A DNA stretch of 64,000 nucleotides from Odontesthes bonariensis (lineage: Eukaryota > Chordata > Actinopteri > Atheriniformes > Atherinopsidae). The position numbers and the translations under genes are program-made. The first letter of the stretch is position 1. The number at the start of each line of letters is the position of its first letter. Where the stretch lies: positions 25,351,209 through 25,415,208 of the forward strand of contig NC_134510.1 in the NCBI RefSeq assembly GCF_027942865.1, read 5' to 3'. Shown one piece after another: positions 12,029-42,170 of the stretch. Below the pieces are notes generated by a model. That model was not told where the DNA came from, searched no databases, and was given only the letters and a program-made list of their open reading frames with translations.

Positions 12029-14042
12029 ATTTTTTTTTTTTAACAATATTTTTTATTGAAGTTTCAAGTGCATATCAAACTTTATGTTGAATGTAAACTT
12101 TTTCATTTTCATTTATATCCCCTCGAACAGCCACTCATTCACACAGACAAAGAAAATAAATAAAAAATAAAATAAAATCAGGGCAGAATCGTTTCATAAC
12201 CTGTTATTCAGTCAGTGTTATCTGTTTCATTGGTCAGGAATGACATAAATGATTCCCAAATACAAGCAAACTCCTCCTGTTTACCTTTAACAATGTATGT
12301 CAATCTCTCCAGTCCAAGACAAGTCATCAACTCCTTCTTCCACATTGCCAGTGATGGTGGCTCTACATTTTTCCAATATAGTGCAATCGCTCTCCTTGCA
12401 TGGAGAAGTCCAAAGTCAATCATTTTCGATTGCTTTGTTGTTCTGATGAAATCCTTGGGGTATATTCCAAGTATGCAGATTGTTGACGTCAAAGGAATGT
12501 TACACTTAACCATCCGTGATAAACGTTTAACTACATTTCCCCAAAATACCAAAATCTTAGAGCATTCCCATAGGCAGTGAATCAAAGTTCCCTTTTCAGT
12601 CAGACATTTAACACAAACATCAGGGATGTTAGGGGAGATATGGTGAAGTTTTGCAGTTATATAAACCCTCATTAACCACTTATACTGAATCAATTTTAAT
12701 CTTGTGTTAATTGAATTATTTTGTGCTTTTAAACATGCTCTTCCCCAATCTTCTTCACTAATTTTTCTTGTGTATCTGTTCTCCACACATTTAATTTATC
12801 CGATGCTGATTCTGTTGAGTAATCCGCTAAAAGGTTATAGAATCTAGATATGTGTTTTTCACCGTTTCCTCAATAATCGATAGCGGGGGTGTGGCCATGA
12901 ATGTCTCGTATTTTGATGCTATAAAACTTCTTAATTGCAAATATTTGAAAAAGTGTTTTTGAGGAACTCCGTATTTATGACAAAGTTGATCAAATCTGAG
13001 AAGGGTACCTTCAAAATAAAGGTCCGAAACGGTCCCAACTCCTTTCTCTGCCCATAATTTGAAACCCCCATCCAATCTACCAGGTTTGAATTGTCTGTTG
13101 CCCCAGATAGGAGTAAATTGTGATAAAGTTAATGTTTCATCAACAAAGTTATGTGCTGCATACCACACTGATATTGTATTTTTAACAAAAGGGTTTCTTG
13201 TCTGTTTTTCCAGTGTCTTGATGTCTGAGGAATATAAATACTGCTTTATGGGCAGATCTGACACTGATTTTTGTTCAATATTTACCCAAGCAGGTGGTGT
13301 GGATGAAGAAAAATAGTACATTGCAGAACTTAATTGGGTAGCCCAATAATACCACTTCAGGTTAGGGACCCGAAGTCCTCCCCTTTCATAGGGTAAAATA
13401 ATAACTTGAGCCGGATTCTACCCTTTCTATTGTTCCAAATGAACTGGCTAAATATACTATTAGTTTTTTTTATAGAAGTCACTTGGTAATGGAAGCGGGA
13501 GTGCTTGGAAAAGATATATAAATTTGGGTATAATAGACATTTTAATAAGATTTATACGACCAATCATTGATATCGGCAATTTAGACCACCGGTCCAACTT
13601 TTCTGTCACTTCGTCTACCAGAGGGTTATAGTTTATGGGGACAATGTCGCCAAGTTTCGGGGCAATCTTAATACCCAGATATTTAAATCCATCTTAAGTG
13701 GCCGTAAATGGTGTATTTATTTTGGGATTGCGTCTTTCTTCTTCATTTAGGAATAACAATACTGACTTAGAATTGTTTATTCTGTATCCAGAAAACTCGC
13801 CAAAGTTTTCGAGTAAAGTAATCAAATTTGGAATACTGTTCCTCAGGTTTGTTAAGAAAAAAATGATGTCATCAGCATATAATGCTATATGATGCTCTAC
13901 GTCCCAAATCCTGATGCCGGATATATTCCTACGTGTCCTTACTGCTATCGCGAGAGGTTCTATTGCTAAAGTGAAAAGCAAAGGAGACAATGGGCAGCCT
14001 TGCCTGGTTGAGCGTTGTAAACTGAAAGGTTTAGAAATTGTG
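12029..14042 (-). mobile_element. L1-like LINE, 3' half (RT and C-terminal domain)
   Basis: On the minus strand the frame starts near 14042 inside the reverse transcriptase: RQGCPLSPLLFTLAIEPLA, then the catalytic box LYADDIIFFL. It continues with GYRINNSKS and a C-terminal region ending at 12208 (MENRYTRKISEEDWGRAC, with a CVKCLTEKGTLIHCLWECSK zinc-knuckle-like block). A 3' UTR of about 170 bp follows, ending at a poly-T on the plus strand (12029-12042), which is the poly-A tail of the element. Several frame breaks (near 13690 and 13410) make it inactive. The 5' side of ORF2 is absent, because the element switches orientation at about 14043. Confidence 0.85.
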
Positions 14043-15114
14043 TTATTAGAGGGCGCTAGCGAGCAGGCGATGGAGTAGGCAGCACAAGTGACATGCTCTG
14101 CTGAATTTCGTTTTAAATTTCTTTTCTAGGCACAGTATTCAATAGGAACCTGTGACACATCGCCTCAGTCACTATTTTTTTATCATTATACATTATTTTT
14201 TGTGTGATACATGGCCTACAATTTGCGGAAATTCGAGTTCACCGGAGGAGCCTCTGCAACTGGGCCAAAAACCTCGAGTGAGCCGCCACCCAAGTGTAGT
14301 ACACCTCAGCCTGCTGACCAAATGGACTTGGCGGACCTGAAGACCGAAATCCTCGCGGCGTTGAAATCAGAAATAGCCATGCTGCTCAGGTCGGAGCTTA
14401 AAGCCGCTCTATCTGAAGATTTTGAAAACATCAAATCCGAGCTACAGGCAGTAAAGTCGGAGCTGGCTAACAACACCGCCGCGATCCGCTCCGAAGTGGA
14501 GGTGATGAAAACAACGGTGTTGCACATGGAGCAGGGGCTGTCATCCTGTTCAGACGACGTTACCTCGTTGCTAAAGAAAGTGGGGAAACTTGAGACGGAG
14601 GTCGGCAGTTTGCGGGAGAAGTGTCTTGACATGGAAGGAAGAATGAGACGCTCCAACATCCGAATATTAAACGTCCCAGAAACCCCAGGCTCAAGCTCAC
14701 CAACGGCTGTCTCCAAACTGCTAAGAGAAGCGCTGAAACTGGATAAAGACATCCTGATCGACCGGTCTCACAGAGGTCTGCAGCCGAGAAGCCAAGACGG
14801 AAAACTCCGGGGTCATCGTGGCGAAAGTTCATTACTACCAGGATTGCGCGGACATCCTCCGCCGCGCCAGGGAGTCCGGACCGCTCCGATTCAACGGGAC
14901 AGATGTTTTAATTTTCCCGGACTATCCCCCGAGCATCGTACAGGCCAGATCTGCCTTCAACGAGGTGCGACGACTGCTTCGTGGTCGAGACGGTGTTAAA
15001 TACGGTCTCCTTTACCCAGCGCGACTCCGGATCACATATAACGGAACTGAGAAACGGTTTCAAAGCCCGGGAGAAGCCATGGCTTACGTGAAAGCCGAAA
15101 TCTTACCGGACTGA
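14043..15114 (+). mobile_element. L1-like LINE, inverted 5' half (5' UTR and ORF1)
   Basis: Immediately beside the RT fragment but on the opposite strand lie about 170 bp of leader and an ORF1-like frame from 14211. It begins MAYNLRKFEFTGG. A long coiled-coil follows (LKTEILAALKSEIAMLLRSE, then repeated heptads through about residue 145), and then the RRM-like start RRSNIRILNVPE. Near 14815 the frame is broken. The C-terminal domain continues in another frame from 14818 (KVHYYQDCADILRRARESG to the stop at 15112-15114). This is the nucleic-acid chaperone type ORF1p of L1/Tx1 elements. Confidence 0.85.
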
Positions 15115-16104: not shown

Positions 16105-16272
16105 GCGTGCATTTTAAGAAGACGTACTATGTATGACCAATAAAGAAGTATAAGAATCTGAGTGGATGCGGTCTCCGAGTCGTGAGTATAAGTTTCAGTA
16201 CTAGTTTCAGTTTGTATAAATATATTTTCAGTTCAATTCAGTGCATGTTGTGATTATGTCATCGGTTTTTAA

Positions 16273-17042
16273 AGGAACAGTTCACTATTTAAGACCTTGA
16301 GTCCCAGTTCCAGTTTGTTTATCAAGAATAAGAAATGAGGAGACCATTTTCACAACAATAGCTCATTTCTATCCATTTTGGCTGTTTTCGCTGGTCCATC
16401 CTGCTGCTACAGACAGGGTTCCATTGGGCACTCTGTTCAATGTCCTTAAAACAATACTAATGTTAATTTTAAAGAAAAGGTCAACTCACCGGGTGGTTCG
16501 TGGATGTTCCTGTGTGTCCCAAAAAAAAATTGCGTTGCGAAATAAAAGTTATTTCTTGCTTTATTTAGCATTTTGTAATCCAATTGTATTCCGTTTGGAA
16601 GACTTTTCACTTTCACTTTCACTGTCAGATCACTGCGCCAGGGTGAAACTCCCATCTGGTGGCCGGGAGTGGGCTAGAGCCTCAGACTCAAATATAGAGC
16701 GGATGTTTACGTGCGTCGTGATTTAGCATGAAAAATAGTTCCTGAACAGCAAAGAACACGGATTACACGGATGGAAAACCATAAAATGCACCGACATTTT
16801 TTTTTTTAATACCACTAACCACCCGGTGAGTTGACCTTTTCTTTAAAATTAACATTAGTATTGTTTTAAGGACATTGAACAGAGTGCCCAATGGAACCCT
16901 GTCTGTAGCAGCAGGATGGACCAGCGAAAACTGCCAAAATGGATAGAAATGAGCTATTGTTGTGAAAATGGTCTCCTCATTTCTTATTCTTGATAAACAA
17001 GCTGGAACTGGGACTCAAGGTCTTAAATAGTGAACTGTTCCT
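16273..17042. mobile_element. TTAA-flanked foldback transposon with ~225-bp inverted arms
   Basis: The element is 770 bp long. The left arm 16273-16497 and right arm 16818-17042 are near-perfect reverse complements. The ends read AGGAACAGTTCACTATTTAA and its complement. TTAA lies directly outside each end (16269-16272 and 17043-17046), which fits a TTAA target-site duplication. The central 320 bp has no transposase. The ends do not start with CC, which argues against piggyBac; Kolobok-type elements also use TTAA and are the better guess. Confidence 0.85.
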
Positions 17043-17337
17043 TTAAGTCGCTTTGTAGAAAAGCGTTTGCCAACTGTAACATAGGCCTAATTCCATTCAA
17101 TCAATCAATTTCAATTCAAATATAGGCTATTTTATTGTAAAATATTGATGTGACATCCGCAGGGAAAATAAATAGGATACATTTATTACATATACAAATA
17201 AAGTGACCAACTCATGAAACGGTTATATTATTGGAAAACAAGGTTTTATGCAAACGGGTCTTTCTGTGGGTCGCGACCCCCAGTTGGGAACCACGAGCAC
17301 CCACCGGCATAAACATAAGTCGGCGCCCCTGTCTAAC

Positions 17338-17719: not shown

Positions 17720-18530
17720 CAGCGAATTGCACCTGTATGGCGGGGTAAGTAGCCTATTATGCTAGCTGTTGTGGGTTTAAGATAATATAGTGCAGCAGAG
17801 CTCTATGATATACGTAGCTATGCAAAGATTAATTATGCTTCTGTGTGATGGTCCACGGGGCAACTTTTTGGCAATGTTGTGTGTATCATCACCTTTGTCC
17901 TTTCAAGTTTAACTGAGCCTATTACTCCTTCGTAAAAATCGTATTCCTAGCATCTAACTTTCTCACAACCAGGGTTTGAAACTAACATTTTCATGAACTA
18001 CACAGAGTGGCAACAGGGTTCAAAATGTCTGCAGCCAATATAATTCAGTTAGGCTACATTCAAAACCTTAGCTTAGGTCGGATGCTCACACGTCTAGTAA
18101 GTCAGATGTTTATATACTTAATAGCTAGTGCCGAAATATGGCGAGAGCAAATGTTACTTTCAAGCCTCGGTCATAACATTATGGATCAGCCAGTAAGTTT
18201 ATTATGTTTTTGTTCAATTTCAGGCTTGGGTCATGCTGCAGCCATACAGCTGCAATATTATTCAAAGTTGAGCTCTATGTTAGGATGGGAAGGACAGAGA
18301 AAGCTGCGGTAACTTCAGGAGAGTGCATGTGGAAAGACATCAGCAGGAAAGAAGTCAAACCAGCTCCATCAGCTTCCACAAACCAAAGAGGCTAGGCAGG
18401 CAGCTTCCAGCAGCTTCAACATCTACTAGGAAGAATAGTATCACACACACAGAGGCATGTAATAGTTGACAGAGCCTAGAAAAGTTTTCTATTGCCATAG
18501 TGCATTCAAGTAATAATCAGCCACACATAC
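17720..18530. other. possible transposon interior, no recognised gene
   Basis: A 101-codon plus-strand ORF (18007-18312) has no known motif. This stretch may be intron or leader of the downstream YqaJ-coding element. Confidence 0.35.
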
Positions 18531-18953
18531 TTGCATGATATAATGCAGTACAAAACACAGTTAAATGTCCCATCTGTGCTCTGGGGTAAAAACATGGAGG
18601 AAACGGCAAAACAACACTACACTGCATTTATGTCCCAAAGCCATCCAGATTTCAACGTCAACTCATGTGGCTTAGTAGTGCATCCTTCTGAGCCACACCT
18701 TGGATCATCGCCAGATGGGATAGTGAGATGTACCTGCTGTGGCAAAGGGGTGGTAGAAATAAAGTGTCCCTACAAATACCGCAATAGCCTTGAAGGATGT
18801 GCAAAGGACAAGCAGTTTTGTCTGGACAAGTCATTCTCATTGAAACATTCACACACATACTGGTATCAAACTCAGCTAAACATATTTGTGTGTGATGTTA
18901 ACATAATTAGTGATAAAAGTAGCACTATAAACTTTAATAACTACAGAAAATAA
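18531..18953 (+). CDS. YqaJ/lambda-exonuclease-like nuclease domain (transposon-derived)
   Basis: A 140-codon frame carries the PD-(D/E)xK nuclease pattern of the YqaJ/lambda exonuclease family. It has WGKNMEETAKQHYTAFM (E-x3-A-x3-Y helix, residues about 19-35), then PHLGSSPDGIV (catalytic Asp), VVEIKCPY (E-x-K), and a late YQTQLNIF (conserved Gln helix). All expected active-site residues are visible. The frame continues to about residue 140 and ends shortly after the domain. The frame is open upstream, so the real N-terminus may lie in an earlier exon. YqaJ proteins in fish commonly belong to DNA transposons such as ISL2EU. The ORF converges on the integrase/Ulp1 gene, whose stop is only about 110 bp away. 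Activity is inferred only from motifs. Confidence 0.75.
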   Translation: MHDIMQYKTQLNVPSVLWGKNMEETAKQHYTAFMSQSHPDFNVNSCGLVVHPSEPHLGSSPDGIVRCTCCGKGVVEIKCPYKYRNSLEGCAKDKQFCLDKSFSLKHSHTYWYQTQLNIFVCDVNIISDKSSTINFNNYRK

Positions 18954-19064: not shown

Positions 19065-22000
19065 CTACAAACAATTGTCATTGTGATAACAATTGTGGCA
19101 AACTAAAAAATAAGAAAATTTAGGGTGAACAATATTAGATTTCTCACCACTGCTAAGGAGAAGTCTCACAGCAATGTCCAACCTGAGGCTGTTGACCGCC
19201 TCTGTGGAAACAGGGAAGTCCACAGCCTCTTTTGCAAGGAGTCTTTCTGCAAACTGACATGTAAAGCTTCATTTAATGGTTATAAATTTAAGAAAGTAAA
19301 AAAGTTCATATGTTTCAAAATATATGTCATAATAATAAAATCGCTACATTTTGTGAAAATATGTATGCACCTTCAATGCAAATACTCCACAGGATGTACT
19401 GTCATGTTGTTTGGGATGTTTGACAGTATCACATGTCCACCTTGACACATTGCACCCCTTCTTGCTCATAAAGGCCCTGTAAATATATGTATATTTATAA
19501 GAAGAACATCACTTGAATTTAATGTTTAATATTTACCCATACCTTGTGATTTGCAAACATTGCTGAATGTCTTGCTTTGATTCCCCCAGTGGATCCAAGA
19601 GCAAAGACCTTTTGTCTTGTGGGTAGATCACCTAAAAAATGTGCAATCAACAGTTTTCATGTGGTTTTTGCCATGACATAGCTATGATATAAGACATTTT
19701 TAAAATATAAAAGAAATTTCTTACCACTAATGTCCAGTGGTGGTGACTGTTATTGATTCCCAGAATGATATCATTAAGCATTGGGTTCATCTGTGTTTAA
19801 AAAAATAAATAAAATCTGTAAATATTTTGATGTTAAGAACCAAAAATGTATGTTTAGTAATACTAACAATGAACTAAGATTAGAATTTGGTCTAAGTGAT
19901 GCAGAAACATCTGCTAATATATATATTGAACAATAATAGCATAACCACAATCATTATAATGCTATAATATCATAACCATCAACAAACTATCTTATCATTG
20001 ATAGTAGAAAAGTTACCTTTAATCTAGGACTTTTTCCCTGCCACATTGCTGTCATTGCAAATGAATCAATAAAAGCCGCCTGTCCTGTATTCTGGATGTT
20101 GTAATCTTTCACGATGACAGCCAGAAATGCATTAATAGACTGCAAATGTATTAAAAAAAAAAAAAAAAAAAAATCAAAGATTAGCAAAATGTAACAGCTT
20201 TGAAATTTGAAAACAATGTAGTCATTGTACCTCACTCTCCAGCTCCATATCGGGACCGATTTTATTTATGTCAGAGTAAAATAACTTGTAAGCATTCACT
20301 CTTGACAGAAGGACATGGACGTCTTTTCCCATAAAAGTATCTTGGACATCTGATGATGAGGATAAGGTAGTGGAAGACAAAACGAAAATTAATGATGAGT
20401 TTCATTATTATAACACCCATTTCCTGTAATTTTAAAAAGTAATATATATGTTATCCACCATTAGGCAAATAAGATGATTGGAGTATGATAAAGTAGTACG
20501 TTCACTGATGAAGACAGCTATTCTTCATCAGTGAAGAATCAGTGATAGCTGTCTTTTAATAATAAAGTCTTTTAAATAATAAAGTTTGCAGTATTAATTG
20601 TATTGTTTGACTGTCATTTTTCTTTAGATTAAAACAGGGTCTTTATGAGATGCTAAAGAAAAGTTACATATTTAAGCTATGTAGATTGATATACATTCAT
20701 AAAAATAAAAATATAAAACTTACTTTTCTCCGCTGCAGTTTTTCTTTGTTGAATATCAGACTGAAGAGTAGTTGTAGGTGGAGCAGAGTGAGGTGATGCT
20801 GGAGCAGAGTGAGGTGATGCTGGAGCTGGAGCAGAGTGAGGTGATGCTGGAGCTGGAGCAGAGTGAGGTGATGCAGGAGCTGGAGCAGAGTGAGGTGATG
20901 CAGGAGCTGGAGCAGAGTGAGGTGATGCAGGAGCTGGAGCAGAGTGAGGTGATGCTGGAGCAGAGTGAGGTGATGCTGGAGCTGGAGCAGAGTGAGGTGA
21001 TGCAGGAGCTGGAGCAGAGTGAGGTGATGCTGGAGCTGGAGCAGAGTGAGGTGATGCAGGAGCTGGAGCAGAGTGAGGTGATGCAGGAGCTGGAGCAGAG
21101 TGAGGTGATGCTGGAGCTGGAGCAGAGTGAGGTGATGCTGGAGCTGGAGCAGAGTGAGGTGATGCTGGAGCTGGAGCAGAGTGAGGTGATGCTGGAGCAG
21201 AGTGAGGTGATGCTGGAGCAGAGTGAGGTGATGCTGGAGCTGGAGCAGAGTGAGGTGATGCTGGAGCAGAGTGAGGTGATGCTGGAGCTGGAGCAGAGTG
21301 AGGTGATGCTGGAGCAGAGTGAGGTGATGCTGGAGCAGAGTGAGGTGATGCTGGAGCTGGAGCAGAGTGAGGTGATGCTGGAGCAGAGTGAGGTGATGCT
21401 GGAGCAGAGTGAGGTGATGCTGGAGCAGAGTGAGGTGATGCTGGAGCTGGAGCAGAGTGAGGTGATGCTGGAGCTGGAGCAGAGTGAGGTGATGCTGGAG
21501 CTGGAGCAGAGTGAGGTGATGCTGGAGCTGGAGCAGAGTGAGGTGATGCTGGAGCTGGAGCAGAGTGAGGTGATGCTGGAGCAGAGTGAGGTGATGCAGG
21601 AGCTGGAGCAAAGTGAAGTGATGCTGGAGCAGAGTGAGGTGATGCAGGAGCTGGAGCAAAGTGAAGTGATGCTGGAGCAGAGTGAGGTGATGCTGGAGCA
21701 GAGTGAGGTGATGCTGGAGCAGAGTGAGGTGATGCTGGAGCAGAGTGAGGTGATGCTGGAGCAGAGTGAGGTGATGCTGGAGCAGAGTGAGGTGATGCTG
21801 GAGCTGGAGCAGAGTGAGGTGATGCTGGAGCAGAGTGAGGTGATGCTGGAGCAGAGTGAGGTGATGCTGGAGCAGAGTGAGGTGATGCAGGAGCTGGAGC
21901 AGAGTGAGGTGATGCTGGAGCTGGAGCAGAGTGAGGTGATGCTGGAGCAGAGTGAGGTGATGCAGGAGCTGGAGCAGAGTGAGGTGATGCTGGAGCTGGA

Positions 22001-25000
22001 GCAGAGTGAGGTGATGCTGGAGCAGAGTGAGGTGATGCTGGAGCAGAGTGAGGTGATGCTGGAGCAGAGTGAGGTGATGCAGGAGCTGGAGCAGAGTGAG
22101 GTGATGCTGGAGCTGGAGCAGAGTGAGGTGATGCTGGAGCAGCCACAGGTTGAGCAGAAAATGTTTGGTTTTCTTGTTTTTTTAGACGATGTGGCACTCG
22201 GGGACTTTCGCTTATACAGAGTTTAAGATGATCTGTGCTTATTTTGCGAAACATTACTCCATTATCATCTTTAAGATCTGCACTTTTCCCTTGGATAGCG
22301 ATGATCGTGAAAGGCCCAAGAAAACCTGCATCTAGCTTTCCACCTTTTCGCTGCTGACTCCGGATGTTTTGTCTCCACACTTTGTCACCGACTTTAAGCA
22401 CAATGTTAGTTTGCTTTGTTCTGCCCTTCATTTTATCCTGTTTTTTTTTAACATTGTCTCTAACAATGTTCCTAAGGCTTTCTTGAATTTTGATGTCCTC
22501 TGACAACTCTTCCACTGCAACAATGTCCTCCACGGCATTGTCAATCTTTCAAGACAAAATTAATATTTCAAGTGTCAGTACAAATTTGTCAATTAGAGAG
22601 TATACCATATATCATATACCATAATCATATTAATGCCATACCATAGACAGATATCAAAACATATTTTGTGAATGAGAACTGACAATGTCTCTTTAAAGGG
22701 TTCATCTAATTTTCAAACTTAAGAAATATTCTGAAACCCCTCTCAAAATAAAGTCAATGTCACATTTGTGAAGGATACACTGAAAGTAGATTCTTTACAT
22801 GACCTTTATGATCACAGTTAAAGCAAATACCAAATATTCCTCACAAGGCAAGAGAACAAAACAAAACAAAAAAAATTTAGATAAACACTAACGGTACCTA
22901 TGTAAAGAAGTGGTAATGGAAACTTTGAATTCTTGACATAAATACAATAACATGAAATGTAAAGATTGACCATAACCATACCAAGTAGTCTTCAGGAACT
23001 TCGGAAGGATACCGTGCCTCTCTTCCAAACATCAAATAATAGGGAGAATAGTGCTTAGTTATTTGCTTCTTAGTGCGAAGCCCAAACATGACAGCATCCA
23101 GGTACTCATCCCAGGTATTTGGATGGCCATCCACAACTTTACTCAGAGCTCTGAAATACAAGAAAGGTATAATATGTCACAGATGGACATAATTTCAATT
23201 CACAAATTCTCTGCCTTCGTCAGTCAAAATCATTTTTGGGGCTTCAAACTGATGCACAAACTTTAGTATGCACTCAGTAACTTCTGAGGCGGAGTTTGTC
23301 TTCAGTGGGTAAGCCTGTGGCCACTTTGTAAAGCAATCAATCATGACACAGATGTACTGGTGTCCAGATTTTGTTTCAGCCAGTTTTCCAATGAGGTCCA
23401 TTCCAACCAGTTCAAAAGGATGGGAAACCTTAAACAAAAGAATTAATACATTGATTAATTAATAAATAAAAAATAAAATAGGAACACGTACTGTTATCAA
23501 AATTGATAGCTTTTCGACACAGTGAATTTTTTGAATATGTAAAAATCCATTCATCCATTTTCTACATCAACTCGTTCTAGATCCATACCCCTAATGAGAA
23601 CACACAGAGAAAACTGGACAACCAACAACTGATACTCGTTGAGAGGGGCAATTTAGGGCGTATTCACACCTACCTCGTTAGTTCCGGACCAAACGACCAA
23701 ACGGACCAGATTTTCGTTAGTTCGGACCTTTTGGGATGGTCTGAATACAAACCACCGAACTCTGGTCCGGACCAAACAAGCGGACCGAGACCGAGCTGAA
23801 AGGTCGGACTCGGTCCGGATCAGACGAACCCTGGTGCGGATCTTTTGGAGGTGTGAAAGCAGACCGGACCTAATCCCAGACTTTTTGCTTTTTTGTACCT
23901 CGGGAGCATCCGTCGTTTGTCTGCTGCTAGGTAACAGAACAGAGCGGCGTTCTTCTAATTACTAGACCGGCTGTGGTAAAGCTAACGAAAGACCGAAAAT
24001 AATATTTCTAGACCGAAAATGAGTAGGGGACAAACGTGGGCCGAAGAGGAGACCCGTGCTCTTGTGGACGTTTGGGCAGATGCCCACATATCATATACGT
24101 TGGAGCGCACTCATAAACATATAGTTTTGATTATATTAAAAGCAATAACGGCACGGAAAGCGTCCATGACTACATTCACTTTTGAACTTAGCACTTTGTG
24201 TTGCGCGTGTCGATTCTGACCAATAGCCGAACGACTTCAGGGCGCGTGGCTTTGATGACATATTTTGGTCCGTTTACTGAAATGTACAGTCTGAAAGCGA
24301 ACCGCACCAAAATGAAAAAAAAAAAGGTTCGGACCAAAGCAAGTGAACTATCGGACTTTCCTGGTCTGAATACGCCCTTAGAGTCAAGACTTAACCAAAC
24401 CTATCATGAGTAGACCCATAGGTAGGACATGCAAACCCCACACAGAAAATACCTTAATACCAAACATCCTTGTATGTTGAGGCTACTGTGCTTACCAACA
24501 CACTACCATGTAGTCTCACTAAAAGTGCTTCTTTTTACTTTCAATTAGTTTACCTTTATGGGAGTGTACTCTGATGGTTGTTTCAGGACTTGGGCACTGG
24601 CCTGACAGGATGAGCAATCAGAGACCTGAAGAGTTATTTGAAGACAAAAATCAAATAGATTTTAACACGTGTAAAGTAGATATTATTGGACAACTATATT
24701 TTCATATTGGCAATACAAATAAGGCTTACTCATTTATTTTCCTAAAATTTTAAACTTTTAGTAGGTAGCAGTCAAGAAAATTGTTTATTTTGTTCATGGC
24801 TTATTTAACATACCCATTTCTTGATGTCAACAGACATTCCAGGCCAATAAAACCTCCTTGAGATGGTATCTATTGTTTTGATCTGGCCACAATGTGCCCC
24901 AGTCGGGCTGGCATGGAAGTCCACAAATATTTTTTCTGCTGCCTCAGCACCTTTCACAACTTTGACCTTTACTGATGTAACACTGCCTCTGTGTCTTACA

Positions 25001-25016
25001 TAGAAGAGGTCATTTC
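19065..25016 (-). CDS. multi-exon Ginger/Gypsy-type integrase - repeat linker - Ulp1 protease gene
   Basis: Minus-strand exons with good splice sites: 24814-25016 (HHCC zinc region, HASPTGAHCG and RRFYWPGM), 24554-24625 (CSSCQ), 23204-23428 (integrase core, VGMDLIG and ILTDEGREF), 22982-23150 (TKKQITKHYSPYYLMFGREA), 20724-22545 (integrase C-terminal domain GDKVWRQN and LGPFTIIAIQGKSADL, then the Ala-Pro-Ser-His repeat), 20231-20349, 20017-20139 (FIDSFAMTAMWQGK), 19725-19790 (SHHWTLV, catalytic His), 19543-19631 (LLLDPLG, Asp), 19371-19476 (KQHDSTSCGVFALK, Gln and Cys) and 19065-19253 (stop 19065-19067). The Ulp1 part looks catalytically complete. The integrase lacks the stretch holding the third acidic residue, because 23204-23428 jumps directly to ALSKVVDG. 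No start exon was found upstream of 25016, so the gene is 5'-incomplete or its first exon is unrecognised. The SPYYLMFG block is typical of Ginger/GIN1 and Gypsy integrases. It is probably a transposon gene; domestication is possible. Confidence 0.8.
20501..20535. repeat. short perfect hairpin
   Basis: Arms TTCACTGATGAAGA (20501-20514) and its exact complement (20522-20535) enclose a 7-nt loop. A second small inverted pair, AGACAGCTAT / ATAGCTGTCT, overlaps it. It lies in an intron of the integrase/Ulp1 gene just upstream of the Ulp1 exons. No function is assigned. Confidence 0.8.
20781..22145 (-). repeat. coding minisatellite, ~56 units of 21 or 27 bp
   Basis: The tandem array is built from two unit lengths that differ by a 6-bp GCTCCA-type insert: 21 bp encodes APASPHS and 27 bp encodes APAPASPHS on the coding strand. 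I count about 56 units. A two-base variant giving SLHF occurs in two units close together (near 21604-21670). Since both lengths are multiples of three, the array stays open in the true frame. It also yields long spurious ORFs in a second minus frame (LQHHLTL) and on the plus strand (EQSEVML); those are shadows. Confidence 0.95.
22546..22981. other. intron of the integrase/Ulp1 gene
   Basis: AT-rich, no separate feature seen. Confidence 0.6.
23656..24377. mobile_element. Harbinger-like element with TTA duplication and SANT-like ORF remnant
   Basis: The termini GGGCGTATTCA and TGAATACGCCC are inverted, with TTA on both sides (23653-23655 and 24378-24380). That is the 3-bp target duplication expected of PIF/Harbinger. 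Long subterminal stretches are full of GGTCCGGACC-like motifs. A short frame at 24019 (MSRGQTWAEEETRALVDVW) matches the start of a Myb/SANT-like domain, the DNA-binding partner protein of Harbinger elements. It stops after about 30 relevant residues. The element sits in an intron of the integrase/Ulp1 gene. Confidence 0.85.
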
Positions 25017-29815: not shown

Positions 29816-30433
29816 ATTAGGTATATCTTAAACTAATGGGTATCTGAAAGCTAAAGATGCTTACCTTCAATGTCGTATGAAGACGCTTTTCTTCGAATGA
29901 CATATTTTTGTTGTTTTGTTGAATGCTGTGGATATTCGCCTTTGAATTTATAGTTAAGGAGCGTGTCATATTCCACACTGTCCATATTTCTGAAAGGTGT
30001 CGACTTGATAAAAGACTATCCGTGGGACACAACAGCAAGTTATGACCTAAACTTAGCGGACTTACTTATTTGCATAATTGATTGAAGGAATAACGTCACG
30101 TGGTTTTTTGACTTTCCGGACAACAGTATATATGTCGTAGGGGATCTTTTTCTGGAACATTTTTTTTACATATTGCTTGAAATACTCTTCACACCCCCAT
30201 TGCAACCAATTAATTAAAAGTTTTGACACAAATATGAAAAGTTTTAGTGGCCTCTAGAACGTACAATCTAGGAAAAACGCCGTCTATCAAACTGCAATCT
30301 GCTCCTCCCTCCCCCCCCTCCCCCTCCCCCTCACCCTCCTTCCCCCTGTGCGCGTACCCTGCTCCGTGAGCGCGTCCAGATGCTTGGCAGGAAGCTAACT
30401 AGAGCCAGCTTGGCTAGCATCTAGCATTATTAA
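29816..30433. other. intergenic, no gene seen
   Basis: It contains a C-rich run near 30306-30345 and short ORFs only. Confidence 0.5.
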
Positions 30434-31035
30434 AGCTGCAGTCTGCAAGATTTGTTGTTGTCATATGTAAAGTCCTACTTTTTGGCATTTTAAGAGTTTA
30501 CATGATCTATCAGAACGCTTGAAGTTGAAAACGGTGACCTCCGTAGTCGCAAAATGCAAGAAATGCTTATTTTTTAACCGAAAAATAAAAAGTTATTCAA
30601 CTTCCTGTCCCGCCCCTTCAAAACACATGAGAACTCGTGCACGTAGACGTGCACGCCAGATGCGCCTACACGACTCCTCATTCATCAACTCACCTGTCAT
30701 TTGCGATCATGGAAGACACAGTAAGTAGACTAGCCCGAAATGAAATTCAATAGTCCAGATAAATAAGCGTGGGTACGAGCCTACCTTGTATCGCGCGTGC
30801 ACAATCGGTGATTGACAGGCAGCAGAGCCCAGCTCGTAACCTGATTGGTTACCTTTTACCGGTCCGGTCTGCAATTTTGTAAACAAACCTGCTGGCTTTG
30901 GAGGGACCTAGCGGGACATATAGGGGACCTAGAGAACTCGTTTTTTTTTTTGTATTGGGGTATTTAATGTACTACTTTCAGAATCCCCGGACAGTTCCAG
31001 GCATTATGCTTGAAAAAGAGTTGCAGACTGCAGCT
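30434..31035. mobile_element. TTAA-flanked short DNA transposon
   Basis: The element is 602 bp with inverted ends AGCTGCAGTCTGCAA and its complement, and TTAA immediately outside both (30430-30433, 31036-31039). It has no transposase. It shares the TTAA target with the elements at 16273 and 35955 but not their end sequence. Confidence 0.8.
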
Positions 31036-31403
31036 TTAAACGTAAAGTATAGTTAGCATATGCTAAATACTAAATACTAAATACGGCAACGATCGATGCT
31101 TGCTGCACCTTCGTGCTCGTGCACGTTCATGTACTCTAGAGGCGTGCCTTCGGGGGGAAAGTGAAGAAAAGGGTTGGGACTTTTTACCTGTGTATTTTCA
31201 AAATGCAGCTTCGCTGGACTCAAAATCCAGGATCTCCTACCCTACTATGTTACATTTAATTTCTGTGAAAATATTTGTAAATTAACATGTCAACATTTAA
31301 ACAGGAGATTTATTTCAGAAAAATCAACAAACGCAAAAGTCTTTTTATTTATTTATTTTTTTTTTACAATTTTTGGTTTGACAATATTATTATTTTCTCC
31401 GAG

Positions 31404-31790
31404 GTAAAATTGGCAAATAAAGAGCAAATGTTTTCAAATTCACAGGATTTGTTGTCCATGATGAGAAGAACAAACACAGTTAAGGACTTCCTGGTAAATT
31501 AATTTGTTACCATATTATGTAGGGGAACAGGTTATTTCAGGGACCTGAAATATTTGGTTCCCCCTGGTAACTTTGGCAAATAAAGAGCAAATGTTTTAAA
31601 ATTCACAGGATTTGTTGTCCATGATGAGAGGAACAAACACAGACTTCCTGGTAAATTAATTTGTTACCGTGTTATGTAGGGGGAACAGATTATTTCAGGG
31701 ACCTGAAATATTTGGTTCCCCCCTGGTAACTTTGGCAAATAAAGTGCCAATGTTTTCAAATTCTCAAGGATAGTTGTGTATGATGGTATA
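31404..31790. repeat. ~160-bp tandem repeat, 2.3 units
   Basis: Units begin at TGGCAAATAAAG near 31411, 31574 and 31733. Each contains the ATGTTTT-x-AAATTC block and a GGTTATTTCAGGGACC-like block. It lies between the last transposon and the sphk2 promoter region, with no coding content. Confidence 0.85.
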
Positions 31791-32339
31791 ATTGAACGAC
31801 CTAAATCTCCAGATGATTAATTAATCCCTGCCCATGAGGTAACAAAACATTACAAGGTATGAGCTTCAGGCTGAAACATTGTATTTGATGTTTCTAAAAG
31901 CATACATTACAGAATAATTGAGAAATATTTTAATATTATGCTAGAGCTTATTATCTAATTTTTCGTGTCCTGCTAACAGCTAGCTTCCATCCTTTTATAT
32001 CATCAATAAAAATGATAAATACCACAATGTGTTGGAAGACAGCGTTTGCTGGCTAACTGATATTTGTCAGGCTAAAGTGAACATGACAAAAGATGGAAAG
32101 ACTGATTCTCTTTGCGATTAAAAAAACGTGTCAGAAGAACTCACACACAAGTAGGTTTATTTGTAGTTTATTTTACAGGTTTGTTTTTCTTTTTTACAGA
32201 AACTGTCGATTAAACTGAAAGTTACAACATGATACGAGAGTCGTTTAACTGAGAAATCGATGAGAAGCGCCGCAAACATGTTCGGATCCGCCTCTCTGGC
32301 TGCAAAGCGCGCTCCCGACACAGGGGGAACAGATTCTCA

Positions 32340-32554
32340 CGGGGGAACAGAATTTCGTACAAGACCGGAAGTGGTGGCCAGTCAATGATTGGAGAATGTC
32401 GGTGGGTGTTGCGATGTTTCCTTATCGTCATTGGATTTCCTCTCCGCCGCTCAGAGGTGCTGCTGCTGCTGCTTCGTCTCCAGACACTTCCTGCACCGAG
32501 CCACAGTTTCCACAGCCCGCGACTAACTCGTCGTGAAGGGGTAGACAAAATGAG
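32340..32554 (+). promoter_or_regulatory. candidate sphk2 promoter and non-coding first exon
   Basis: This CpG-containing stretch has an ETS-type CCGGAAGTG (32365-32373) and an inverted CCAAT (ATTGG, 32388-32392), and no TATA box. A likely first exon runs through a TGCTGCTGCTGCT tract and ends at a donor (AATGAG|GTAATC, 32554). Only sphk2 lies downstream in this orientation. How the leader is spliced to the coding exon could not be resolved. Confidence 0.5.
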
Positions 32555-35252
32555 GTAATCTTCGGCTTTGTTATCTTTGTGTTTGGTCCAGCTGGACTCG
32601 TTTTCTATCCCGGGCTTCCATAATATTGAGCTAAAAAAAAAAAGGACGATTTATCGTGTATTATTGATACACAAAACGCCCCGTTAGCCAACGCTCTGAC
32701 GTGTCTGCCCTCTTAAATGGAAATAAGATAAGAAACTTGAAACTTCAATTAGTGCGTTTTGGTATGCCTGATGTACGACCTGTCTAATTACGAGGAAATA
32801 GTTTGTAATAGCTGTAAACTGGCTTAAACCAAAGCTGCGCGTGAATGGCTAACTGCTAGCCAGTGCTAACTGACAACGCTGTGACAGGCAGCAGTTTACA
32901 GCAGTTAAGCTCGAGCCCATCACATTTGCTAGCACCGTTATTAGATACTTCGTGGTTCCTTACAACTTTAAACTCCTCTTAATTTCCTCAATCCTTAAAC
33001 GTTAGTGAAAATGGTTCTTCGGCTTGACTGTACAGCAATTGTTGAAATGCAGTTTGTAAGTTAGCTGGCCGGTCAGGCAGCTAGCTGGCGCAGGCTGACA
33101 ACATCGAGCAAAGTTTACCGGCGCATTGGCATTTACTAAATATCATCAGACTGCTAAACAAGCTTTTAACGCGACTACTGAGTGTGAACATTATCCTGGG
33201 TGGATGAATGCTCCCGTGCCCAAGGCGTAACCCCACCGCAGCTTGACCAACATATTCAACAGCAGCCTCATTGTGTGGGTGACAAATTTAGCCTGCTTGT
33301 GTTATTATTTCTGGGTGTACCCGCCCTGCGCTTCAAGGACGTAAGGTGCAACAATAGGCATCAGTGAGGTGCTTTTCTGCGTGTTTTGTCAGGACAGGAC
33401 ATCCGCCATGTATTGATTTTGTCTCCATTACAGCTTGCTCAATGTTTCCTGACTGTTACAGAACTTGGAAGATGTGACCAGGTTATTAATTTATGGTATA
33501 CTGAAGTCCCACAGCAGTAATCATTATATTCAGACGCATGGTTAGGACCCAGCTTACTTGGAGCTTCAACAATAAACCTCTTGTAGAAGATCAATTCACT
33601 GCTGTCAGAATTAATGCGGCCACTAATGTATAAGGTTAAATTTACGAGTTTGTTCTGCCATTTCCCCCCACTTGTAGTCACTGTTAATTCTTAATCTGAC
33701 TCCTAATTAATTAATTTCTTTGTTCTATGATGAAATTTCTAATGCGCATTGCTAACGCTCTAAAATCCTGTACCATTTAGGTCAGCGTTCCAAGATTCAG
33801 TTTGTGAAAGAGGCACTTTGTCCCCAAATCCCGTTAGCCAAGAGCTCTGAGTAGAAGAAAAATACCAGCAAAGTGTGGTCATTTCATCCTCCAGACAAAA
33901 CTAATGTGATGTCTCAGCAAAGGCCATTGAGGATGTGTGACTGTGAGTCAGTAGATGCACCTAAGGTCAAGGAGCACGATGGATCTTGTATTGCTTCACC
34001 CTGTTAGCACAATCTCTGCCTCTTATCACAGCTCTCTTCTGTACTCGCCGCACTCCAAATGTTAAGAAAACGTGATAAGGAATCATTTTCCTTTGCTCAG
34101 CAACATTCAGGGTACAAATTAATTTGGTCTACCTGCTTTAGAGATACTTCCAGAATGATCACACTGCAGTTTTGTTTGTTCTCCACTTCTTACATTTACA
34201 GTTGTCCCCTCCTGCTCCCCCATACAGGAACAGAGGTCTTTGGGAGGGAACGTGAGGCTTTGTTAAAGGACATTAAGATGACATAAACTAAGGACTTGCC
34301 TGGAACTGTCTTCTTGTTTGTCTTTTGTTTTTTTGTTTCTCTTTTCTGTTTTGTCTTTTGTTGTTTTTTTTTTCTTTTTGTTGTTGTTTGTGGAGGAGAA
34401 TTTTCTCGGATAAAACTTTAACGTATCACACTACTGTCTGGGAGACTGGCCTTGTCACTCCTCTTGTCTGCCTCCTGTATATCACTGAGTTTTAAGATAG
34501 CAATAGAGGTATCAAAGGTCGAACAACCTGCACTTATCATATCTTTGTGGCATTAATTACACTTCAGTTTGCACTTACCATGCAACATAATTTACATAAA
34601 TCTTGTGCATTCACTTAATTGAATTGTTTTAGCCTCCTTGTGTGAGCAAGGTGTGTTCGCTTTGTCTTAAGACTTCATTTGATCGATTTGTTAATGAATT
34701 TTAGAGGTTCAGTTTTGTCCATTTGTGTAATTATTTAAAGATTTCTTGTTGATGTAAAGTTGCTGCTCCGCTGCCTTGCATTGCTATCAAAAGAGGTGGC
34801 TTTAAGTTGTTATGTGAAACTGTTTTTATACATATGCAAATTTTACGTGAAGAACACTTGTTTAAAAAAGTCTGATTTTACATTGTTAAGTCCTGTTGTA
34901 TTGAAGTATTGCCCGTCTAAGTTTTCAACTGACAGGGATCGGTGTAAGCTGACAGATCAAACTGTGACATAAATACTTGTTTTAGCAGTTCCCATCTTCA
35001 CTGGATGATCACTCTAAACAAACGACACCTTTAACTGGACAAAGTTTTTTTTTTTTAAATGAAGCCCTAATCTGACACGGACACACAGGAACCGAAGGGA
35101 CGTTGCTCGAAGAATGATTTTGAAGTGGTTTCAGGGATAAAGTTCTCAGATTTTCCCATTAGACCTTGAGGAGCTGCCACTCTTCAGGCTTCTAACCACA
35201 TAAAGATCCACTGTTTTAAGACTGGTGAACTTTGTCCACTCGAACAGCGAGG

Positions 35253-38200
35253 ATGCGATCCCCGGAACCTTCTTCACCTTCTCCAGCAGAAGCCCTCCTT
35301 CATGGCCAGTTTGCCAGCTGGGGATCTGGCAGTAACGGCAACAATAACAGCTGCCCCAACAGCCCTGGAAGTCCAGGAGGGCTCTCCCCCGCTGCCTCCC
35401 CAACTCTGGCGTCCAATTATGCCTTGACCCTCACCCACACCCACCTACACATTCAGCGGCTGTCACCACGTTCAGGAAAGGAGGCCCGTCTCCTGCTCCC
35501 TTTATCAGAGCTGGTGGGGTGCAGCTGCCCTCGTGCCCCTGCACCGCCCCTGCTGGTGCTGTACTGGTACCCTCCGGGGAAACGACGGAAGGGGGTGTCG
35601 CGACGCAGGCAGGTGAGGGCCTACCTAGCAGAAAGCAGGCCCGAAGCTGAGAGGTGGTCGGCCGCTGTGCAGTGTCTACTCAGAGGTGTGACCGTCACTG
35701 CTGACACAGGTGAGTGGGCGTTTCACCTCGTTGGCTCCATGTGATGCTCGAGGTTTCAGGCAGTTTTGACATCAGCATGTCAGGATAATGTACTTGCAGG
35801 GTCGTAAGATTTTTCTTAAAGACGCATCACAAATTATTACCCTCAGGTGAATAAGCTGTAGTTTTTACTGCCGTCGCCATTAAGCAAACACGTTTCTGTA
35901 TGAAGGTTGATATGAAATTCTTTGAAATATGCAAATTGGGTATCGTCTATTTAAAGGATAAGACCGGTTTTTTGACATTGGGCCCTTGATTTCACATTAT
36001 AACATGATGTTCTACTCACCCCTGCTTGTTGTTGAACATTTGGAGCTGTTCCGAAGATATTCGAGAGGCGTCTGGCTGCTCTCTTGAGATATTCGGCCAT
36101 GAAACGGTTTCCTATGGGCAAGCTTATACAGGCACAAAATATGCTGTTTATAATTTATTAATTACTGTACATTAGCACTGATAACGTGGAGGTGCGTCGC
36201 TTACTTAAAAAAATCCGGGTTATTGTAATTTTGATTTTTTTGTCTTAAAGTGGGTGTTACTGACGTCCTCGTCGTGCTACTGCCACAGACAGCCCACAGA
36301 CCTGCTGCCTATTTATTCATTCGGCTAAAATTCAAAATTAGTAACCCGGATTTTTTTAAGTAAGCGACGCACCTCCACGTTATCAGTGCTAGTGTACAGT
36401 AATTAATAAATTATAAACAGCATAGTTTGTGCCTGTATAAGCTTGCCCATAGGAAACCGTTTCATGGCCGAATATCTCAAGAGAGCAGCCAGACGCCTCG
36501 CGAATATCTTCGGAACAGCTCCAAATGTTCAACAACAAGCAGGGGTGAGTAGAACATCATGTTATAATGTGAAATCAAGGGCCCGATGTCAAAAAACCGG
36601 TCTTATCCTTTAAACCTACAAGGATTTTCCTAAAGGTCGCCAGGGAAACGGTGGTAAACACCTGTATGGATGTTTTAGTTGCGTCCTGTCCGCTGGTCTG
36701 CGAGAAGATGCGTTACGAAAGCAGAATTTCAAAAGCAAGGTTGTCTTTGTTCTTTTCTTGGGTTGTTTTCATCTGTAATACCCTTTTCTAAATAGTAAAA
36801 AAATAACCACGGTGATCTCCTGAGACACAGCATGATGAAATGTCTTTTGAGTCATAAATCCAAAGAAACTCGGCTTCATCAACATAAAACCAAAATTAAT
36901 TTGATTGTTTAGGTGGAAAATGACAGGATTTCTAATTTTGTGTCCAAAGTTCCAGCAACTCAAACCACAGAGGTTACTCTGTTTCTGTTTAAGGATGTTG
37001 ATCGTTGATACTTTGTTGAGTTAAATGGCTTCATTTGTTTTCAATAGTGACAGCTTACTGGTCACACATTTTTGTGGGACTTGCTTGCTCTGACCTTCAT
37101 GATTGTCTCCATGACTAAGTCTTGAACTCCACACAATGCTGCCTCATTCTGCTTTGATTTACACCTCCTTTGTAATTGCTTGCTAAGTTTAGCTTAATGT
37201 CACAGTGTTCCAAGACTTTCCTGTATGTACAGCGCACACACTGAGAGAACAAATTGGCCAAAAATTTGTTAGCCATGCAGGGAAAAAAAAGAAAAGAACA
37301 GAAAACAAAAACAATGGTTTTTAACTTAGATTAAGACGAATACACCCAGATAGGCATTCATATCCGGGCAGCTGTTTATTTAGTTTGTTTCAAGTGACAA
37401 CCCCCTGAGCTTATTTATCTATAACTATACTCCATTATTCCCTCCCTTATCTGTACTGCACACACGGCCTGTATCATACCGTGTCAAATGTAAAGATGCA
37501 GAGGGTGGGGTCGCTGAAGCTTGCCAGCCCTTCTTCTTGCCATATTCACCAGGATCAGTTATCAACCAGATAACTGCTTTTTGTTTACTTTCCCTGGCTG
37601 GTTTTTATGTCTTTTTTTTTTTTTCAAAACTTTTGTCTGTGCATCGCTTCACTTTCCCAGCTTCTCCATCTTTTCTTCGTCCTTTCGTCCCTTCTCGTCT
37701 TCATCTTCGGCTGTCCTTAGTCACAACCTGTCTCTCACCCTCCTTCCCACAACTTTGAAAAAAGGGAAATGAAGCCATGATTTGATTTTGACTCTCGCTC
37801 GTCCTCTTCGTGCCTTCTCTTGTCACGCTTCAGTCATAATCTGTCAAAAATTCACGTCGCTCAGCACTATTATAGAATCACTGTCTCCATTCTAACGCCG
37901 ATTGGCGTGACAGCCGTGGTTCGTTGGTTTCTGCTTTGCTTTGGTCTAATTTGTTGCGTAATCCAGCTTTAGCACAGCCATTTCAACTCCTTCCCTTCAT
38001 CCGTTGGCATCATTACCACACTTTATCTTAGCACGATTTGTAGGTTTAACTATTGCTTTTCCTCCCGGAAAAAAAAAGGAGGGAGGTACCTTTGCTCTAC
38101 TGCTTCAGCAGACTGTTTTGATCCCAAAACTAAATCGGGGACCGACACAACAAGTTTAGAAGTGTTTTCTTACCATGTTTCTGAACTTAAATGATTAACA

Positions 38201-41200: not shown

Positions 41201-42170
41201 GATGTGGCTCGTGAGCGATCCCTCACCATCTCCTCTCCTTTTCGTCACTCTCCCTTCTCTTACAAGAAGAAGGCGCTGGACCAAAACCAAAACGCCTCCC
41301 GTCCGAGGCCCCTCTCACTCCTTCAGCACTCCCACTCAAACACCCTCCCCCCTAAGTTCCCTTCCCTCTCTCTGTCCCCTACACCGCCCTCTTCCCCTTC
41401 TTGCGCCTCCCCGCACTCGTCATCCTACCTCGTCCCCCGTCCAAACACCCCAAATTCCACCTCGCCGTCTCCTTCCTTACGCACACCGTCCTCATCCTTT
41501 AACTTTGACATTGCTGAACCAGCAGGACCCTTCAAGAACCGTCCATTTGTCTCGCTGCCTTTCGATCTACCAAGAGATGACTTGTTACCCCCTCTTGACC
41601 AACCCATTCCCACTAGAGACTGGGTCACCATTGAAGGGGACTTTGTTTTGGTCTTGGCCCTTTATCAGACCCACCTCGGGGCTGACCTCCATGCTGCACC
41701 CCAGGCCAAGTTTGACGATGGGCTGATCCACTTGACCTTTGTGCGGGCAGGGATCTCCAGAGCCACGCTACTCAGACTGTTCTTTGCCATGGAGAGGGGA
41801 AACCACCACTCCGTCAGCTCACCGTACGTGAGCCACATTACCTGCAGGGCCTTCAGGCTGCAGCCTCTGTCTACACGAGGAACGCTCACTGTGGACGGAG
41901 AACTCGTGCCCTACGGGCCGCTCCAAGCGCAGGTCAGAGGGAACAAAAATCGTGCTTTGTACTCAATATAATTGTCATGGAATGCTGAAAATCTGTGTAG
42001 TAACTATGTGATCACATAGGATGTGCTTTGCACCAAGTATTAATGCTGTGGTATTGTGTTCATTAGATATTAATGACGTTTTTTCTTGATCTCTCACTGT
42101 TTCACAGGTCCATCCTTCCATCGCTCGTCTCATTGTTGGAGATACTGGAGTGCAGATTACTAGATTTTAA
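35253..42170 (+). CDS. sphk2: sphingosine kinase 2
   Basis: A lipid kinase that phosphorylates sphingosine to sphingosine-1-phosphate. Coding exons: 35253-35709, 38366-38515, 38609-38703, 38813-38928, 40049-40252, 40333-41932 and 42108-42170, about 894 residues in all. The ATG at 35253 starts MRSPEPSSPSPAEALLHG. Conserved blocks in order: LLVNPFSGRGQA (C1), IIVSGDGLLHEVINGL (nucleotide-binding, C2), GILPCGSGNALAGS (C3), AWGFVSDVDIESE and RYRGLGSARFTLGTL (C4), and DGLIHLTFVRAGISRATLLRLFF (C5). The long N-terminal extension and an insert of nearly 400 residues between C4 and C5, rich in Glu/Arg/Ser then Pro/Ser, point to type 2 rather than type 1. It is clearly longer than human SPHK2 (about 654). 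The insert lies wholly in one exon without stops. The large intron before 38366 hosts a foldback element. Confidence 0.93.
35955..36609. mobile_element. TTAA-flanked foldback transposon in a sphk2 intron
   Basis: The element is 655 bp. The arms, about 270 bp each, are near-exact reverse complements. The ends are AGGATAAGACCGGTTTTTTG and its complement. TTAA flanks both sides (35951-35954, 36610-36613). No coding content. It is unrelated in sequence to the element at 16273 but has the same architecture. Confidence 0.88.

What the first reader, a model, noticed from the sequence alone, without database searches (positions are those of the whole stretch)
19065..25016. Integrase - minisatellite linker - Ulp1 protease gene with an apparent gap at the integrase glutamate
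The Ulp1 half shows His, Asp, Gln and Cys in order and all splice phases join. In the integrase half the first two acidic positions are visible (VGMDLIG, ILTDEGREF). The segment that should carry the third (the HPQTNG-E region of Gypsy/Ginger integrases) is absent between 23204 and 23150; the only bridge is a 53-bp intron-like stretch. A gene that keeps a protease and a long open reading frame while losing integrase catalysis could be a dead transposon or a repurposed protein.
Basis: partly seen in the sequence, partly recalled or inferred. Interest (0 to 1): 0.75.

Follow-up and report, generated by a model that had tools for sequence, protein, structure and literature searches.

The report
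Broken Ginger1-like transposon in a fish
This stretch is a decayed copy of a known kind of jumping gene (integrase plus SUMO-type protease); a small deletion removed the exon with the catalytic glutamate, and comparison with its sister copies shows no clear sign that the fish has kept it for a new use.

Summary
The gap is real, but it is a deletion, not an intron. The 53-bp bridge (23203-23151) is 7 exon bases plus the last 46 bases of a former intron. In 3 of 3 sister copies compared in the same genome, extra sequence lies there (313 and 314 bp in C12 and C23), including a donor site and a 116-base exon for the YHPQTNG-E region. Contrary to the finding, splice phases do not join across the bridge. 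The gene is larger than reported: an exon 1 lies at 29985-29865 and the element's 5' end is near 32364, beside CCGG. Homology to a sister copy stops at 18898; the PHD-finger exons and 3' terminal repeat are missing. Domains (H2C2, rve, GPF, Ulp1; PHD in relatives), inverted terminal repeats and CCGG-like flanks point to a Ginger1-like DNA transposon. The five sister copies looked at all carry damage. Differences private to this copy are no rarer in exons than introns, in the integrase half (25/825 vs 18/920) and the Ulp1 half (18/570 vs 15/806). A dead transposon fits; a repurposed gene is not supported. Worth keeping: a gene of about 15 exons, and a tandem-repeat linker in 17 of 17 relatives measurable, with units differing between lineages.

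The parts
32365..32368 (.). CCGG next to the element's 5' terminus (candidate target-site sequence)
   Evidence: CCGG directly outside the terminus here and at 6 more of 13 termini read; ACGG at 1 of 13; GG as last two bases at 13 of 13
31403..32364 (-). 5' terminal repeat (contains a 163-bp tandem repeat); inner border approximate
   Evidence: matches the 3' end of the C12 copy in inverted orientation, 88% over 940 bp; its outer 217 bp has 23 matches in the genome, this one included; tandem repeat 31403-31785
24814..25016 (-). exon 2, H2C2 zinc-binding domain
24554..24625 (-). exon 3
23197..23428 (-). exon 4, integrase core with the two Asp motifs; its last bases, its donor and the following intron start are deleted
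23196..23197 (-). deletion junction: 313 bp (C12) and 314 bp (C23) lie between these two bases in sister copies, including the donor and the 116-base Glu exon
23151..23196 (-). last 46 bases of the former intron before exon 5
22982..23150 (-). exon 5, sequence following the Glu region (phase 2 in)
20724..22545 (-). exon 6: GPF motif region, then the tandem-repeat linker
20779..22140 (-). minisatellite linker, 55 units of 7 or 9 residues (SAPASPH / SAPAPASPH)
20231..20349 (-). exon 7, start of the Ulp1 part
20017..20139 (-). exon 8
19725..19790 (-). exon 9, Ulp1 His
19543..19631 (-). exon 10, Ulp1 Asp
19371..19476 (-). exon 11, Ulp1 Gln and Cys
19148..19253 (-). exon 12, end of the Ulp1 part, followed by a GTGAGA donor; the PHD exon expected next was not found
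18898..18899 (.). 3' truncation point: homology to the C12 copy stops; PHD exons and 3' terminal repeat are not in the window
23655..24378 (.). insertion in intron 3 with 16-bp inverted ends, absent from C23 and C29 at the same point

Best explanation
A degenerate copy of a Ginger1-like cut-and-paste DNA transposon of a fish. When active, the element made one protein from about 15 exons: N-terminal region, H2C2 zinc finger, DDE integrase core, GPF module, repeat linker, Ulp1 protease, PHD finger. By analogy with Gypsy-type integrases and Ginger1, the DDE core would have joined the element's ends to CCGG-like targets, and the protease presumably removed SUMO or a similar tag during transposition (both inferred, not tested). 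This copy lost about 314 bp (a donor, the Glu exon, most of the next intron) and ends early at 18898, without the PHD exons and 3' end. It cannot encode the whole integrase and appears to be drifting. Shown: domain order, deletion, truncation, sister copies, no detectable constraint. Inferred: activity of the ancestor, exon count of the full gene, order of the events.
For: Pfam domains. 163 related proteins, the named ones among the 120 listed nearly all from fish; rve runs to profile position 102 of 102 in P0001, P0003 and P0012 but only 3-78 here. Own genome: close copies at C29, C12, C23, C19 by DNA and C25 by Ulp1. Glu exon in 3 of 3 copies compared. PHD remnants in C12. Terminal repeat with 23 genome matches, this copy included; facing inverted arms at one locus (L041/L042, outer ends missing). 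Private differences: integrase exons 25/825, introns 18/920; Ulp1 exons 18/570, introns 15/806 (Fisher p 0.17 and 0.15). If Ulp1 exons changed at half the intron rate, 18 or more would have probability 1.2e-5 (intron rate taken as exact). A second family in the same genome (C15) shows the same exon order with another linker repeat. Several genera fall in more than one clade of the Ulp1 tree.
Against: Apart from deletion and truncation, the 12 remaining exons hold no stop, cleaner than the sister copies. Unpolarised private codon changes are 17N:10S in 359 codons here against 16:4 (C23), 11:2 (C29) and 5:2 (C12), where 0.73-0.76 N is the neutral expectation. Outgroup-polarised changes: integrase 4N:0S, Ulp1 1N:3S, with 3N:2S and 3N:1S ambiguous (Fisher p 0.14): too few, but leaning to constraint on Ulp1. 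A protein-level test shows 0 of 33 changes at conserved Ulp1 columns; it covers the whole branch, active life included. The usual TGTNR end is TCTTG here. Among the loci read no copy with both ends and a two-sided duplication was seen.
Confidence: 0.9

Rival explanations
1. Repurposed host gene: the integrase was inactivated and the locus now makes a DNA- or RNA-binding protein or an Ulp1 protease, comparable to GIN1, GIN2 or Imagin.
For: No stops in 12 exons; Ulp1 His/Asp/Gln/Cys kept; polarised Ulp1 changes 1N:3S; precedents in print.
Against: Exons not slower than introns in either half; no upstream exon ends in the phase that exon 5 needs; PHD exon not found and homology ends at 18898; the sister copies looked at all carry damage.
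Confidence: 0.05
2. Assembly artefact: the 314 bp are present in the animal and were dropped from this assembly.
For: Only one assembly was seen; no reads were available.
Against: Three sister copies were assembled with the segment; the 3' truncation is separate damage.
Confidence: 0.04
3. The 53-bp bridge is a true short intron and the protein simply lacks the Glu region.
For: It begins with GT and ends with AG.
Against: Frames do not match; the GT is coding in most relatives and the real donor lies a few bases downstream in the sister copies.
Confidence: 0.01

Closest known systems
Ginger1 DNA transposons with Ulp1 or Ulp1+PHD (Ginger1-4 to -10_HM and -12_HM of Hydra; Bao et al. 2010, PMC2836005, parts 1-3 of 5 read)
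   Same: H2C2 + Gypsy-like DDE core + GPY/F + C-terminal Ulp1, PHD in one of them; terminal inverted repeats; CCGG-like flank
   Different: This family has about 15 exons against 0-4 introns in that paper's table, a terminal repeat of roughly 0.95 kb against 40-270 bp, mostly TCTTG rather than TGTNR ends, and a tandem-repeat linker not mentioned in the parts read; this copy lacks the Glu exon, PHD and 3' end
GIN2 / GIN1 vertebrate host genes (PMC2836005 parts 1-3; passages of PMC3424704)
   Same: Ginger1-derived, multi-exon, H2C2 and integrase core; in GIN2 the DDE triad is reported as less obviously conserved
   Different: Those are described as orthologous host genes; this is one of several damaged copies with transposon ends and no detected constraint
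Imagin, a Ginger1-derived gene of malacostracan crustaceans (abstract and passages of PMC12863088)
   Same: Ginger1-derived and without the catalytic Glu
   Different: Imagin is reported as single-copy in kuruma shrimp, conserved for over 400 My, under strong purifying selection and expressed in gonads; copy number and lack of constraint differ here, expression was not testable

Membership tests
Ginger1 DNA transposon | H2C2 zinc finger | tested here: met
   PF17921 E 5.3e-18
Ginger1 DNA transposon | DDE catalytic triad | tested here: not met
   Two Asp present, Glu segment deleted in this copy; Glu segment present in 3 of 3 sister copies compared. So: a broken copy of a Ginger1-like family, not a working Ginger1
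Ginger1 DNA transposon | GPY/F motif | tested here: met
   LGPF read directly in exon 6; the SH3_Tf2-1 profile hit is below its cut-off
Ginger1 DNA transposon | C-terminal Ulp1 or OTU protease | tested here: met
   PF02902 E 5.7e-11; SENP2 E 1.2e-4
Ginger1 DNA transposon | YPYY motif upstream of the zinc finger | tested here: inconclusive
   An N-terminal exon in the right place containing EYP and a later Y exists; the motif's exact columns were not available
Ginger1 DNA transposon | Terminal inverted repeats | tested here: inconclusive
   Window 5' end matches C12 3' end in inverted orientation; facing arms at L041/L042; no pair above chance within the window, whose 3' end is lost
Ginger1 DNA transposon | CCGG or CCGT/ACGG target duplication | tested here: inconclusive
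   Outside 13 termini: CCGG 7, ACGG 1, other NNGG 5 (two of the five are one duplicated flank; L051 and L054, whose first 7-9 bases do not align, were left out and do not show it). GG at 13 of 13 could also be part of the terminus. Two-sided duplication not shown
Ginger1 DNA transposon | TGTNR termini | tested here: not met
   TCTTG here; TGTTG at 1 of 13 termini (L055)
GIN2/GIN1 host gene | conserved orthologous gene under purifying selection | tested here: not met
   Close sister copies; exons not slower than introns. Orthology to GIN2 itself was not tested
Imagin-type domesticated Ginger1 | intact frame without DDE under purifying selection | tested here: not met
   Frame broken at the gap; no constraint detected

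The most novel reading that the evidence does not exclude
Fish Ginger1-like transposons are unusually intron-rich mobile genes (about 15 exons, same exon order in two families of this genome that are roughly 61-76% alike exon by exon) whose integrase-protease linker is rebuilt again and again from unrelated minisatellites, so the many introns of the host genes GIN1/GIN2 may have come from the transposon rather than arisen after domestication.
Probability: 0.45. Interest if true: 0.5.

Novelty: new member of a known kind. Interest (0 to 1): 0.27.

Why it matters
It explains an apparent oddity as ordinary decay and shows that a missing catalytic exon plus a long open frame is not evidence of domestication until sister copies are compared. 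For specialists it adds a vertebrate Ginger1-like family with Ulp1 and PHD, far more introns than the elements in the founding paper's table, and a repeat linker that differs between lineages, which bears on how GIN1 and GIN2 got their introns.

Tried and rejected
Searched for terminal inverted repeats between the window's two flanks: best score 32 against 26-31 in 8 shuffles, taken as chance; the 3' end turned out to be missing. Scanned IMG/VR for relatives with P0001: none. Searched the window for the missing exon with 7 relatives' pieces and for the PHD with 8: best E 0.047, and no plausible match except the eight residues ending exon 4 (best 60 rows seen). The protein-level constraint test was kept but given little weight because it covers the whole branch: the window ranks 10th of 13 rows (integrase), 20th of 45 (exons 5-6) and is among 13 of 32 rows with ratio 0 (Ulp1). 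A first exon/intron count left out the C23 Ulp1 match, pulled under its identity limit by the array, and was replaced; one search uses BLAST pieces of at least 60 bases and 82% identity from C12, C23, C29 and C19 (C25 was found later and is not in it). Considered a true micro-intron, an assembly error and domestication: see rivals. Literature: searches (1 of 1 paper listed; 11 of 11; 4 of 4; 12 of 48; 12 of 48) were seen as listings; apart from PMC2836005 no listed title or abstract start describes a Ginger1 with Ulp1, and none a teleost one. PMC4746887 (passages) lists Ginger among teleost superfamilies; PMC5753468 (passages) lists Ginger1 as a Repbase superfamily; in PMC9341512 the only match to 'ginger' is an author's name. 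Many subscription papers are not held.

Full report
What is there. On the minus strand the window holds the exons of an integrase and of an Ulp1 protease: 25016-24814, 24625-24554, 23428-23204 (coding on to 23198), 23150-22982, 22545-20724, 20349-20231, 20139-20017, 19790-19725, 19631-19543, 19476-19371 and 19253-19148, with AG before and GT after each; only at the gap does this mislead (last exon end). Pfam finds H2C2 (E 5.3e-18), rve (E 2.7e-11, profile 3-78 of 102) and Peptidase_C48 (E 5.7e-11). The Ulp1 part aligns with human SENP2 (E 1.2e-4) with His, Asp, Gln and Cys in register (that these are the catalytic residues is recalled). tblastn with relatives, among them a tilapia protein (P0001), found one more exon 5 kb upstream, 29985-29865, with ATG, a GTAAGC donor and the right phase. 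The 12 exons hold no stop.

The gap. Exon 4 ends in phase 0 and exon 5 starts in phase 2, so the 53-bp bridge cannot join them in frame; the join gives three codons and a stop. In relatives the residues after the second-Asp motif are Val-Asn in 39 of 51 motif matches, and the bridge begins with those two codons, so its 'donor' is coding. Seven of the 16 relatives printed have gene models that leave the family sequence one residue after this place, which hinted at an ancestral exon end there. The own genome settled it: a DNA search found sister copies at C29, C12, C23 and C19. The alignment of C12, C23 and C29 with the window shows in 3 of 3 a donor a few bases further on, an intron, an exon (116 bases in C23) with the YHPQTNG-E region (one residue differs in C12, the end is altered in C29) and the next intron. 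C12 and C23 have 313 and 314 bp between the bases that are neighbours at 23197/23196 in the window. The bridge is thus 7 exon bases plus 46 bases of the old intron end.

The other damage. Homology with C12 runs to window 18898 and stops. C12 continues with PHD-finger remnants (6074382-6074323 and 6073905-6073834) and then, in inverted orientation, with a match to window 32368-31491 (88% over 940 bp). The window copy lacks both. Beyond 18898 lies a YqaJ-like reading frame on the plus strand (PF09588 E 7.9e-15, profile 41-147 of 150), whose match ends about five bases before the junction.

What it is. The domain order is that of Ginger1 transposons with Ulp1 and sometimes PHD (PMC2836005, parts 1-3 of 5 read). 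A search with the outer 217 bases gave 23 matches, this copy included. I read 13 termini: 11 aligned from the first base, L055 from the third, and C23 by eye. The four bases outside are CCGG in 7, ACGG in 1 and other NNGG in 5 (L052 and L053 share one flank). L051 and L054, whose first 9 and 7 bases do not align, were left out; the places extrapolated for them do not show CCGG. CCGG and CCGT/ACGG are the target sequences reported for Ginger1; since GG is constant, it might instead belong to the element. The usual TGTNR end is not met here (TCTTG), only in L055. No copy with both ends was seen among the loci read, so a target duplication is not shown. I therefore call it Ginger1-like.

Dead or repurposed. 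At sites where at least two of C12, C23, C29 and C19 are aligned and all aligned ones agree, the window differs at 25 of 825 exon and 18 of 920 intron sites in the integrase half, and at 18 of 570 and 15 of 806 in the Ulp1 half. Exons are, if anything, faster (Fisher p 0.17 and 0.15; pooled 0.036; CpG content could cause this, not tested). If the Ulp1 exons had changed at half the intron rate, 18 or more changes would have probability 1.2e-5. Against this: private codon changes are 17N:10S in 359 codons here, against 16:4, 11:2 and 5:2 in C23, C29 and C12; polarised with two outgroups they are 4N:0S (integrase) and 1N:3S (Ulp1), with 3N:2S and 3N:1S ambiguous and 6N:2S and 0N:2S assigned to the sister copies (neutral share of N 0.73-0.76). 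These counts are too small to decide. The frame is clean, too. The sister copies are damaged: a stop and a changed donor in C12, a frameshift and a stop in C23, scattered 5' parts in C29, a stop in C19, and a repeat insertion in the Ulp1 half of C25 (only that half held).

Relatives. Two protein searches gave 163 and 159 proteins; in the listed 120 of each the named sources are nearly all fish, with one turtle and a number of unnamed or environmental rows. On the Ulp1 tree (45 rows, quick method) the window groups with Menidia and Gambusia proteins (4 rows, SH-aLRT 100), and Oreochromis, Melanotaenia, Labeo and Menidia each appear in more than one clade, as expected of a transposon family. In the same genome a more distant family (C15; 0.61-0.72 identity to the window exon by exon, the second outgroup copy up to 0.76) has the same exon order, the Glu region, Ulp1 and PHD, with no stop seen in the exon letters printed.

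The linker. The array is 55 units of 7 or 9 residues, also present in C23 and C19. Of the 120 relatives, 17 had a linker that my patterns could delimit; all 17 exceed 100 shuffles for tandem repetition, with best periods of 7, 8, 9, 15, 18, 22, 27 or 32 residues, rich in Pro, Ser, Thr, Ala and Gln. The signal is weak in four cichlid rows (P0001, P0020, P0021, P0053: 0.25-0.30 against 0.21-0.23), and rows of one lineage share a repeat (cichlids; pipefish; P0007 and P0022), so the 17 are not independent. Between lineages the units differ, so they probably arose repeatedly at the same spot (inference).

Verdict. A broken Ginger1-like copy; the finding's gap is a deletion. Ordinary as a locus, mildly interesting as a sample of a fish family with many introns. 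The species was not identified; 'fish' rests on the relatives.

Noticed in passing
window 18501-18953 (+): YqaJ-like nuclease reading frame (PF09588 E 7.9e-15, profile 41-147 of 150) whose match ends about five bases before the point where the transposon copy begins (18898).
   Followed up: partly
P0008 (Menidia menidia) and P0032 (Gambusia affinis): 97% identical over 231 residues although the fish are from different orders (recalled); both have Asn where the window and many relatives have the Ulp1 Asp: recent horizontal spread, contamination or strong constraint.
   Followed up: no
window 30430-31040: About 610-bp element with 19-bp inverted ends, 97% like C19:35288838-35289446 and 98% like a piece inside the C25 copy; flanked by TTAA by eye.
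   Followed up: no
window 16269-17046: Near-perfect 235-nt inverted repeat (99%) with 308 nt between the arms.
   Followed up: no
window 23655-24378: About 0.72-kb insertion with inverted ends, absent from C23 and C29 at that point; PIF/Harbinger-like by its TAA flanks (recalled).
   Followed up: partly
window 40325-41971 (+), 35229-35744 (+): Possible sphingosine-kinase-like host gene: YegS_C PF19279 E 1.5e-10 in the first frame, no Pfam hit in the second; the name is by eye.
   Followed up: partly
window 13697-14125 (-): Reverse transcriptase fragment (PF00078 E 1.5e-14), probably a LINE.
   Followed up: no
G000 C15:34809011-34813749 (L030): Copy of a second Ginger1-like family with the Glu region, Ulp1 and PHD and its own linker repeat.
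   Followed up: partly
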